Origin: Bdellovibrionales bacterium
GTDB taxonomy: Bacteria > Bdellovibrionota > Bdellovibrionia > Bdellovibrionales > JAGQZY01
Direction of reading: 5' to 3'
NCBI GenBank assembly: GCA_020435205.1
Contig: JAGQZY010000013.1
Coordinates: forward strand, 1 to 42,930
DNA length: 42,930 bases
This document shows, one piece after another, positions 29,186 to 31,952 of this stretch (within the stretch, counting starts at the first letter, position 1; each line of letters starts with the position of its first letter). A model generated the notes under the pieces. That model worked only from the letters and a program-made list of their open reading frames with translations, was not told the DNA's origin and searched no databases. The position numbers and the translations under genes are program-made.

Positions 29186-30304
29186 TCAAATGCGCATAGG
29201 CATAACAACACAAGTGTAATTGGTGTCATTCTGTGGGCGAATCAATCCTGGGGATAACTGTGTGTCTAATTCGAGACTCAGCTTATCCTCTTGAAAGCTG
29301 TTAAGAATATCCAAAATGTATTTGGCATTAAAACCAATTTTGAGATCATCACCGGTGTAATCCACCTCGATTTCCTCTTTGGCATCGCCAAGTTCAGGGT
29401 TATTGGAGCTAATTTCCATGCGTCCCTTGGAAAGGGCAATGGTAACCCCTTTCGATTTTTGGTTGGAAAGCAAAGAAACCCGGCGAATGGAACTCAATAA
29501 AGATTCGCGATCAATACTTGCTGTCTTTTTTAAATTCTTTGGAATGAGCTGCTGATAATTCGGGTATTTACCTTCGATCAAGCGGACCATGAGCACAGTG
29601 GATCCGGATTTTACAATCAGCTGTGATCCCTCAACCGCCATCTGTAGCGGCTTGTCTGAAAAATCCATAATCTTTTTTACCTCAGCAAGACCCTTGCGAG
29701 GAATGATCACACCCGATGTGATGATATTGGCCGTCTCACCAGAGGTGAATCGATCCACCAGGCTTAAGCGATGGCCGTCAGTGGCGACCATACGAAATTG
29801 GGTTTTCCCATTGACGGAATTCTTTTCAAAGTAAACTCCATTAAGGTGATAGCGAGTTTCGTCGTTGGAAACACTATATATAGTGCGATCAATCATATCC
29901 ATCAGAACATCTGGGTTTACTTCGATGAAGTCATTAGTTTTGAAAGTGGGAAACACTGGGTATTCCTCAGGTCCAATGCCAACGATGTTAAATACGGATT
30001 TGTTTTGCTTAATTTGCAGACGGTTATTGGACTTGGCTTCCAATTGAATCGGACCGTCGCCTAACTCTCGGATAATATCAAAAAGGTTTTTAGCATTCAC
30101 AGCAATGCGCCCTTCTTTTTCGATGGTCACAGGAGCTTGGTCAGTAAGACTCACCTCAAGGTCTGTTGCAAAAACTTGAAGCACTCCATCAACGGCCTGC
30201 AAAAGTACGTTGATGAGAATGGGCATAGTGTTTCTTTTTTCGACAATGTTTTGAGTTTTACTGAGAAGAGATACCAGATCTTTTTTATCAATCTTAATTT
30301 TCAT
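29186..30304 (-). CDS. dnaN: DNA polymerase III beta subunit (sliding clamp)
   Basis: This 372-residue processivity clamp forms a ring of two subunits with three similar domains each. Marker segments are LVSLLSKTQNIVEKRNTMPI at the N terminus, VRMVATDGHRL-like FRMVATDGHRLSLVDRF in domain 2, YPNYQQLIPK, and the C-terminal YTCVVMPMRI, which lines the hydrophobic groove for QxxLF motifs. AAGGGA lies six bases before the ATG. The origin separates it from dnaA. The small protein at 4425-4652 carries a motif that would dock here. Confidence 0.96.
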   Translation of the reverse strand: MKIKIDKKDLVSLLSKTQNIVEKRNTMPILINVLLQAVDGVLQVFATDLEVSLTDQAPVTIEKEGRIAVNAKNLFDIIRELGDGPIQLEAKSNNRLQIKQNKSVFNIVGIGPEEYPVFPTFKTNDFIEVNPDVLMDMIDRTIYSVSNDETRYHLNGVYFEKNSVNGKTQFRMVATDGHRLSLVDRFTSGETANIITSGVIIPRKGLAEVKKIMDFSDKPLQMAVEGSQLIVKSGSTVLMVRLIEGKYPNYQQLIPKNLKKTASIDRESLLSSIRRVSLLSNQKSKGVTIALSKGRMEISSNNPELGDAKEEIEVDYTGDDLKIGFNAKYILDILNSFQEDKLSLELDTQLSPGLIRPQNDTNYTCVVMPMRI

Positions 30305-30314
30305 TTTGAGTCCC

Positions 30315-30345
30315 TTATATTACTTCTTCTTATTAATTATAAATT
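30315..30345. other. AT-rich stretch, candidate unwinding element
   Basis: The segment is almost wholly A and T with a few C, next to the TAG array and ending close to the dnaN ribosome site. Position and composition fit a DNA unwinding element. Confidence 0.5.
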
Positions 30346-30360
30346 TAGTAGTAGTAGTAG
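30346..30360 (+). promoter_or_regulatory. DnaA-trio-like element, five TAG repeats
   Basis: Five uninterrupted TAG triplets lie on the plus strand, ending at the GC-rich GCCC. In B. subtilis the DnaA-trio is a repeat of 3'-GAT-5' (TAG read 5' to 3') next to a GC-rich patch and DnaA boxes, and guides DnaA onto single strands during melting. Sequence, strand polarity and neighbours agree here. Confidence 0.65.
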
Positions 30361-30376
30361 GCCCTGTCCAAAGGGC
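30361..30376. repeat. Inverted repeat between the trio array and the DnaA boxes
   Basis: GCCCT (30361-30365) and AGGGC (30372-30376) form a perfect five-base-pair stem with a six-base loop. No T-run follows on either strand, so it is not a terminator. It takes the place of the GC-rich patch of the B. subtilis origin. Confidence 0.55.
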
Positions 30377-30415
30377 ACTTTATCTTCTAACTGTTTAAAA
30401 TATTTAAATTCTTTT

Positions 30416-30424
30416 TGTGGAAAA
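30416..30424 (-). promoter_or_regulatory. DnaA box, TTTTCCACA
   Basis: One mismatch to TTATCCACA, on the minus strand. It is the clear box nearest to the TAG array. Confidence 0.6.
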
Positions 30425-30460
30425 TGTCGGAGAAAAATCTCCCTTTTTTTAACCCCAAAT

Positions 30461-30469
30461 TGTGGATAA
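30461..30469 (-). promoter_or_regulatory. DnaA box, perfect consensus TTATCCACA
   Basis: Exact match to the high-affinity consensus, on the minus strand (seen as TGTGGATAA on the plus strand). Confidence 0.88.
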
Positions 30470-30495
30470 CCAGTTTCCAGATTTTAATCATCAAC

Positions 30496-30504
30496 TTATC
30501 CACG
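30496..30504 (+). promoter_or_regulatory. DnaA box, TTATCCACG
   Basis: One mismatch, at the last base. It is on the plus strand, opposite to the two boxes nearer the TAG array. Confidence 0.65.
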
Positions 30505-30507
30505 GTA

Positions 30508-30516
30508 TTATCAACA
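30508..30516 (+). promoter_or_regulatory. Possible DnaA box, TTATCAACA
   Basis: One mismatch at the sixth position, three bases from the previous box in the same orientation. A further weak match (GAATCCACA, minus strand) is at 30542-30550 inside the end of dnaA. Confidence 0.5.
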
Positions 30517-30524
30517 ATCACAAT

Positions 30525-31952
30525 TCACACCCCTGTGATATTGTGGATTCTACTCTGTAAATCTTCGAAATCTCTTTTTAAATCGGAATTTATGCTCAGT
30601 TCTTTTTCCATTTTGCGCAAAGCATTGAGAACGGTGGTATGGTCGCGTCCTCCAAAGGCTCGGCCAATTTCAACCAGGGATTTGTCCAAATGATTTTTGA
30701 TCAAATACATGGAAAGTTGGCGAGCTAATAGCAGTGGCTTGCTGCGATTTTTGGATTTCAAATCAACAACGCGGACCTTAAAATGCTCGGCAGTGAGCTT
30801 TTGGATATCTTCAACAGTGAGCGTTGTTGTTTCATCATGAACAGCCAAAACTTTTTTAGTCAGATCCAAATTGATTTGCAAACCCTGGAGCTCCGAGAAC
30901 ATTTTGACCTTATTGAGGTTACCTTCCAGCTCACGAATAGAGCGCTTAGAAATTTTAGCTATATATGTAGCTACCTCTTCGGAAATGGGGATCATACGTT
31001 TTTCCGCCTTGTAGCGCAGAATGGCCATGCGAGTTTCTAGCTCAGGCATTTGAATATCAGCGATCAAACCCCATTCGAGTCGAGTGCGGATTCGGTCTTC
31101 CAAGCCTTTAATATCTTTAGGCATGCGGTCGCTAGCGACCACGACCTGACGACCCTTTTCAAAAAAATGGTTCAGGGTATGAAAAAACTCCTCTTGCACA
31201 GCTTCCCCGCGGCCCAAGACATGGATGTCATCCATCAATAAAAGATCGCAGCGCTCCCGGTATTTTTGGCGAAATTTATCCATTTCACCCCGACGAATAT
31301 GAGAAACACATTCAGTAAGGAATCTTTCTGCGGAAACATAGGAAATTTTAATATGGGGAAGGTTTTCACGAATGTGGTTTCCAACGGCATGCAAAAGGTG
31401 AGTTTTACCCATTCCAGTGGGTCCACATATAAAGAGAGGGTTATAGCCTTCGGATCCTGGTCTTTGTGCAATTCGGTAAGAGGTGGCGTGGGCAAACTCA
31501 TTGTTTCGACCGACCACAAATGTGGAGAATGTATACTCAGGATTGAGAAAATCCATTTTTTTAGGTGGAGGCGCATGAGTTAAGGCATTGAAAGTACTAA
31601 CTTTTTGTGCATCTGCGTGAGGTTCATTTGTAGACATCACCTGGTGAAGGGCGCTTGGACTTTCTGGATCCACGGGAAGGCTTTTGCCGGTGACTACAAG
31701 TTCCACTTCAAATGGATTTTGGATCAAACAGGAAATTTCTGAACAAATTCGGTCAAATAGGTTCTCAGAGATCCAATATTTATGAAGCTCAGTGGGGACT
31801 CCAAGTTTGAAGCGTTTTGAATTTTCCGAGATATTTTCAATATCTATAAGATCAGTGGGTTCAAACCAGGTTTGCAAGAGTTTGTTACCCGAGTTCTTCG
31901 ATGTGAGGTTACTCTTTACAAGTCCCCAGAATTCTTCTTTTTTTTCTTTCAC
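30525..31952 (-). CDS. dnaA: Chromosomal replication initiator DnaA
   Basis: Start chosen at GTG (31952), with GGGG six bases upstream; a TTG at 31964 extends the frame but has no ribosome site. The product has 475 residues. Domain I lies at the N terminus (LQTWFEPTDLIDIENIS region), and a variable linker follows. The AAA+ domain has Walker A GPTGMGKTHLLHAVG and Walker B LLLMDDIHVL. The C-terminal helix-turn-helix ends in the DnaA signature EIGRAFGGRDHTTVLNALRKM, which reads the boxes found on either side of the gene. Length is normal. A promoter with a DnaA box at its start point suggests autoregulation. Confidence 0.97.
   Translation of the reverse strand: MKEKKEEFWGLVKSNLTSKNSGNKLLQTWFEPTDLIDIENISENSKRFKLGVPTELHKYWISENLFDRICSEISCLIQNPFEVELVVTGKSLPVDPESPSALHQVMSTNEPHADAQKVSTFNALTHAPPPKKMDFLNPEYTFSTFVVGRNNEFAHATSYRIAQRPGSEGYNPLFICGPTGMGKTHLLHAVGNHIRENLPHIKISYVSAERFLTECVSHIRRGEMDKFRQKYRERCDLLLMDDIHVLGRGEAVQEEFFHTLNHFFEKGRQVVVASDRMPKDIKGLEDRIRTRLEWGLIADIQMPELETRMAILRYKAEKRMIPISEEVATYIAKISKRSIRELEGNLNKVKMFSELQGLQINLDLTKKVLAVHDETTTLTVEDIQKLTAEHFKVRVVDLKSKNRSKPLLLARQLSMYLIKNHLDKSLVEIGRAFGGRDHTTVLNALRKMEKELSINSDLKRDFEDLQSRIHNITGV

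What the first reader, a model, noticed from the sequence alone, without database searches (positions are those of the whole stretch)
30315..30516. DnaA-trio-like array in the dnaA-dnaN gap, with B. subtilis-like order
Five perfect TAG triplets (30346-30360) sit between a GC-rich hairpin and an AT-rich stretch, on the dnaN side of a DnaA-box cluster that includes one perfect consensus box. Established knowledge: in B. subtilis the same order (boxes, GC-rich patch, 3'-GAT-5' trios, AT-rich DNA) guides DnaA onto single strands. The spacing from the nearest good box to the trios is about 55 bases, larger than in B. subtilis, so the link may differ. This is a concrete origin model for a group with few studied origins.
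Basis: partly seen in the sequence, partly recalled or inferred. Interest (0 to 1): 0.6.

Follow-up and report, generated by a model that had tools for sequence, protein, structure and literature searches.

The report
Conserved replication origin in Bdellovibrionales
The repeat is part of the chromosome's replication start site: a five-fold DNA motif that helps the starter protein DnaA pull the strands apart, kept across a whole order of Bdellovibrio-like bacteria, together with a conserved element nearby that looks like a DNA-bending site and appears not to have been reported.

Summary
Five TAG triplets at 30346-30360 (+) lie in the dnaA-dnaN gap. This 15-mer occurs once in the 2.83-Mb genome. 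The polarity is right for DnaA-trios: 3'-GAT-5' reading away from the boxes. The array is under selection: among 115 dnaA-dnaN gaps of the order Bdellovibrionales, 53 have all five triplets and 83 at least four, at a near-fixed 163 (161-166) nt from the dnaA stop. A GC-skew switch at dnaA in a closed relative supports oriC.

One point needs correcting. The '55-base spacing' and 'GC-rich hairpin' are not the conserved architecture. In relatives a DnaA box sits 3-4 nt from the trios; in the window that slot holds the degenerate CTTTGGACA (30365-30373) followed by GGGC. The hairpin is missing in the genus-mate.

Trios in this clade are not new: B. bacteriovorus oriC, with mapped unwinding and four trios, was published in 2016.

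Apparently unreported: a conserved element (window 30388-30400) that fits the IHF consensus, exactly 15 nt from DnaA box 2 in 91 of 92 genomes. It lies between box 1 and box 2, as IHF lies between R1 and R5M in E. coli oriC. Proposed: a BUS-type unwinding module combined with an IHF-bent DnaA platform.

The parts
30346..30360 (+). DnaA-trio array, five 5'-TAG-3' (3'-GAT-5' read away from the boxes); CTAx5 on the dnaA-sense strand
30361..30364 (-). GC-rich spacer (GGGC on the dnaA-sense strand) between box 1 and the trios
   Evidence: 3-4 nt G/C-rich spacer in most relatives; the last base is C in 91%
30365..30373 (-). box 1 slot: degenerate DnaA box CTTTGGACA (4 mismatches to TTATCCACA, 2 to NNWTCCACA)
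   Evidence: aligned slot holds GTTTTCCAC/GTTATCAAC/AATCCACA in relatives; genus-mate L003 has GTTTGAACA
30330..30345 (.). A/T-only stretch next to the trios (unwinding element)
   Evidence: (almost no G or C at +18 to +28 across the order)
30388..30400 (-). IHF-like core TTTTAAACAGTTA (2 mismatches to WATCARNNNNTTR)
30416..30424 (-). DnaA box 2, TTTTCCACA, pointing to the trios; 15 nt from the IHF-like core
30461..30469 (-). DnaA box 3, TTATCCACA (perfect), pointing to the trios
30496..30504 (+). DnaA box TTATCCACG, opposite orientation
   Evidence: hot spot at -144
30508..30516 (+). DnaA box TTATCAACA, opposite orientation
   Evidence: hot spot at -156
30542..30550 (-). box-like GAATCCACA inside the dnaA 3' end; third codon positions of the last eight dnaA codons are unusually conserved across the order
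   Evidence: B. bacteriovorus boxes 7 and 8 also lie there (PMC5124646)
30525..31952 (-). dnaA (GTG start inferred)
29186..30304 (-). dnaN

Best explanation
This is the unwinding core of oriC in a Bdellovibrionales bacterium. DnaA binds two opposed groups of boxes in the dnaA-dnaN gap. From the DUE-facing boxes (boxes 3, 2 and the weak box 1) a DnaA oligomer extends across the short GC-rich spacer onto the + strand. There each protomer captures one 3'-GAT-5' trio, opening the adjacent A/T-only stretch for helicase loading (basal unwinding system, BUS). Inferred on top of this: IHF, or HU, binds the conserved element between box 1 and box 2 and bends the DNA, so that DnaA on the strong box 2 is brought next to the DUE. 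That would also explain how a genus with a decayed box 1 can still open its trios. Shown here: the sequence, polarity, conservation and spacing. Inferred: DnaA filament growth, IHF binding and bending.
For: (TAG)5 is unique in the genome. Among 115 order gaps, 53 have 5/5 CTA and 83 at least 4/5; in the 106 usable ones the middle base is kept at all five positions in 81. Trio columns carry 1.0-2.0 bits against about 0.2 in the least conserved neighbouring columns. The dnaA-stop-to-trio distance is 163 nt (161-166) while trio-to-dnaN varies from 23 to 198. The box 1 slot is within 3 mismatches of TTATCCACA in 49 of 69 non-redundant gaps. Genera outside the order also show box + CTA array. DnaA keeps B. 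subtilis trio-contact residues E183, I193, R202 and E228, with I190 as V (residues from PMC10721633). GC skew is positive at 0.1-1.9 Mb and negative (one sample ~0) at 2.1-3.9 Mb of closed relative G017, so it switches at dnaA. Element at -39..-27: IHF consensus within 2 mismatches in 59 of 69 gaps, against a mean of 3.3 and maximum of 11 at control positions; 15 nt from box 2 in 91 of 92. IhfA is over its cut-off in 126 of 141 order genomes and an IhfA and an IhfB-like protein are encoded here.
Against: Box 1 of the window itself is poor and might not bind DnaA; no good box lies within the 16-bp limit used in the BUS survey. B. subtilis N187 is T here and K222 is G. The second IHF position is mostly T rather than A, and 0.2% of permuted consensuses score as well as IHF. 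IhfB is under its curated cut-off. No binding or unwinding data exist for this organism.
Confidence: 0.85

Rival explanations
1. Same trio module, but the conserved element at 30388-30400 is bound by another protein (a lineage-specific initiator regulator) or is a promoter, not an IHF or HU site.
For: The element extends to TTART at -46..-42, outside the IHF core; the IHF match is imperfect at one position; a sigma70-like hit starts here in 36 of 106 gaps.
Against: Strong position-specific IHF enrichment; IhfA nearly universal in the order; sigma70-like hits are as common or more so at other positions; location between two co-oriented boxes matches E. coli IBS1 between R1 and R5M.
Confidence: 0.35
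2. In this genus the real DUE-proximal box is TTTTCCACA at 55 bp and the link to the trios differs from B. subtilis.
For: It is the nearest box with at most one mismatch; the box 1 slot has decayed in both genus members.
Against: The box at this distance is conserved across the order in addition to box 1, so it is box 2, not a displaced box 1; the GGGC spacer and box remnant are still in place.
Confidence: 0.25
3. A chance trinucleotide repeat or microsatellite without function.
For: Short tandem repeats arise by slippage (general knowledge); no tool result favours it.
Against: Unique in the genome and conserved in sequence, number and distance across some 60 genera.
Confidence: 0.01

Closest known systems
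Bdellovibrio bacteriovorus oriC (Makowski et al. 2016, PMC5124646)
   Same: [quoted passage not shown] boxes extending into the dnaA 3' end; trios next to box 1 with a short GC-rich spacer; unwinding mapped to the DUE.
   Different: They report four trios; the likely Bdellovibrio genus here (g16, name inferred) shows five CTA. No IHF site was described there. Box 1 is much weaker in the window.
B. subtilis basal unwinding system (incC, boxes 6/7 and trios; PMC6669920, PMC8287927, PMC10721633)
   Same: Order and polarity: co-oriented box, GC-rich spacer, 3'-GAT-5' trios, AT-rich DNA; most trio-contact residues of DnaA kept.
   Different: No close tandem box 6/7 pair: box 2 lies about 50 bp away with an IHF-like element between. 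IhfA is over its cut-off here, whereas among the 14 named control genomes only two pass.
E. coli oriC left half (DUE-R1-IBS1-R5M; PMC10380432)
   Same: An IHF site between two co-oriented boxes next to the DUE, with 15 nt from IHF core to distal box in both, and an opposed second half of the box array.
   Different: E. coli has no CTA array, its oriC is not beside dnaA, R1 to IHF core is 18 nt against about 13 here, and the IHF core reads in the opposite direction.

Membership tests
BUS (DnaA-trio origin) | At least three 3'-NAN-5' trios, mostly GAT | tested here: met
   Five GAT
BUS (DnaA-trio origin) | Trio polarity 3' to 5' leading away from the boxes | tested here: met
   Boxes at 30365-30469, trios at 30346-30360, + strand
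BUS (DnaA-trio origin) | Co-oriented DnaA box within 16 bp of the trios, at most 2 mismatches to the standard or species motif | tested here: inconclusive
   Window CTTTGGACA: 4 mismatches to TTATCCACA, 2 to the B. bacteriovorus motif NNWTCCACA; 32 of 69 non-redundant relatives within 2 mismatches of TTATCCACA
BUS (DnaA-trio origin) | DnaA residues that contact trios | tested here: met
   E212, V219, I222, R231, E258 kept or similar; N187 is T216
BUS (DnaA-trio origin) | DnaA- and trio-dependent strand separation | not testable with these tools
   Needs a strand-separation or P1 assay
chromosomal oriC | GC-skew switch at the site | tested here: met
   Sampled skew of closed relative G017; cumulative skew in the window is lowest at about 29-31 kb
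E. coli-type IHF-assisted oriC | IHF consensus between the DUE-proximal box and the next co-oriented box | tested here: met
   59 of 69 gaps within 2 mismatches, 15 nt from box 2 in 91 of 92
E. coli-type IHF-assisted oriC | IhfA and IhfB encoded | tested here: inconclusive
   IhfA over cut-off; IhfB best match but 100.6 bits against a cut-off of 115
E. coli-type IHF-assisted oriC | IHF binds and bends the site, stimulating unwinding | not testable with these tools
   Needs footprinting or ChIP

The most novel reading that the evidence does not exclude
Bdellovibrionales origins combine two mechanisms studied separately in B. subtilis and E. coli: a DnaA-trio unwinding module plus a fixed IHF bend that brings DnaA on box 2 to the DUE. 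In this genus the bend has taken over from a decayed box 1.
Probability: 0.45. Interest if true: 0.6.

Novelty: new member of a known kind. Interest (0 to 1): 0.42.

Why it matters
Trios (B. subtilis BUS) and IHF bending (E. coli) are usually presented as separate ways of opening an origin. An order whose origins keep both, with near-invariant spacing in a roughly 230-bp gap, gives a compact natural system in which each part can be removed in turn. B. bacteriovorus is a laboratory organism whose DnaA has been purified and whose oriC has been cloned and mapped, so the IHF prediction can be tested directly.

Tried and rejected
Hairpin as a functional part: rejected, the 5' arm GCCCT is GCGGT in genus-mate L003; folding it was attempted but the call failed on a length limit. 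Chance repeat: rejected. Promoter for the conserved upstream element: sigma70 hits are not specific to it. A link between weak IhfA and weak trios in the small-genome lineages was noticed but not tested, because overall divergence confounds it.

Full report
OBSERVATION. The - strand reads dnaA (30525-31952), a gap of about 220 bp, then dnaN (29186-30304). Five TAG triplets lie at 30346-30360 (+), which is CTAx5 on the dnaA-sense strand. This 15-mer occurs once in the 2.83-Mb genome. With up to 3 mismatches it matches only at this site in the window, against 0.14 expected. The boxes lie on the dnaA side and the A/T-only stretch on the dnaN side, so reading away from the boxes the + strand is 3'-GAT-5', the polarity of DnaA-trios.

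TAXONOMY. Named records of the closest relatives are Bdellovibrionia, Bdellovibrionales and Bdellovibrionaceae; the genus-mate has 88% DnaN identity. A BUS survey found candidate modules in 85% of 2070 origins (PMC8287927).

CONSERVATION. I extracted 123 dnaA-dnaN gaps, 115 after removing re-fetched duplicates. Nine were set aside because the array is weak or the anchor unreliable, leaving 106. In these, 53 have 5/5 CTA and 83 at least 4/5; the middle base is kept at all five positions in 81. None of the nine set aside reaches 4/5. The dnaA-stop-to-trio distance is nearly constant (median 163, 5-95% 161-166) while trio-to-dnaN runs from 23 to 198. So the array is tied to the DnaA boxes and not to dnaN. 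Trio columns carry 1.0-2.0 bits and the least conserved columns between elements about 0.1-0.3. Box hot spots are two opposite boxes at -156 and -144 and two DUE-facing boxes at -108 and -64; the window has all four. Genera outside the order but in the same phylum also show box + spacer + CTA array.

CORRECTION OF THE SPACING. In relatives a DUE-facing box occupies -13 to -5, followed by 3-4 mostly G/C bases and the first CTA. In 49 of 69 non-redundant gaps this slot is within 3 mismatches of TTATCCACA, against 0-13 at control positions. The window has CTTTGGACA and its genus-mate GTTTGAACA in the slot. The box at 55 bp is the conserved box 2.

AN IHF-LIKE ELEMENT. Between box 2 and box 1 the order keeps an element whose core (-39 to -27) reads W-W-W-Y-A-R-N4-T-T-R. 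This fits the IHF consensus WATCARNNNNTTR / TAAnnnnTTGATW (PMC10380432), except that position 2 is mostly T. In non-redundant gaps 59 of 69 are within 2 mismatches, against a mean of 3.3 and maximum of 11 elsewhere. Scanning the E. coli oriC sequence, the 13-mer between R1 and R5M (GATCAACAACCTG) also has 2 mismatches; that it is IBS1 is my assignment from its position. Box 2 to core is 15 nt in 91 of 92 gaps; in E. coli the core-to-R5M distance is also 15 nt. The window core is TTTTAAACAGTTA at 30388-30400. The genome encodes IhfA (131.7 bits, over cut-off), an IhfB-like protein (100.6 bits, under cut-off 115) and an HU-like protein. IhfA is over cut-off in 126 of 141 order genomes. Literature searches found no report of an IHF site in a Bdellovibrio oriC; a 2023 review lists IHF Bd1639 and says only that NAPs may regulate replication. 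The library lacks most subscription journals, so 'unreported' is provisional.

ORIGIN AND INITIATOR. Sampled GC skew of a closed relative is positive at 0.1-1.9 Mb and negative, apart from one near-zero sample, at 2.1-3.9 Mb, so it switches at dnaA. The window's cumulative skew is lowest around 29-31 kb. The DnaA is a standard DnaA. Of the B. subtilis residues that touch trios (PMC10721633), E183, I193, R202 and E228 are kept, I190 is V, N187 is T, N196 is G and K222 is G.

MECHANISM. DnaA on boxes 3, 2 and 1 nucleates an oligomer that captures the trios and opens the A/T stretch. IHF or HU at the element probably bends the DNA so that box 2 supports this, which may be how a genus with a weak box 1 manages. 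The first part rests on conservation and close precedent (0.85); the IHF part is inference (about 0.5).

VERDICT. A real and strongly conserved origin element, of a known kind and already reported in the related B. bacteriovorus. What this adds is order-wide fixed geometry, the correct box spacing, and a testable IHF-site prediction.

Noticed in passing
window 30525-30548 and the dnaA 3' ends of relatives: The last eight codons of dnaA (ATC CAC AAT ATC ACA GGG GTG TGA) keep their third positions across the order far more than most codons upstream, so DnaA sites probably overlap the coding end, as with boxes 7 and 8 of B. bacteriovorus.
   Followed up: partly
L113, L114, L115, L117, L119, L121: Small-genome lineages of the order (about 1.4-2.0 Mb) have weak or rewritten trio arrays and lower-scoring or below-cut-off IhfA, while several still keep the IHF-like element.
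   Followed up: partly
gap position -46 to -42 in relatives (window about 30403-30407): A conserved TTART just upstream of the IHF-like core is not part of the IHF consensus and remains unexplained.
   Followed up: no
L184-L187, L192, L193, L200: Genera outside the order but in the same phylum carry box + CTA arrays, several with a TTR at the same distance, so the layout may be older than the order.
   Followed up: partly
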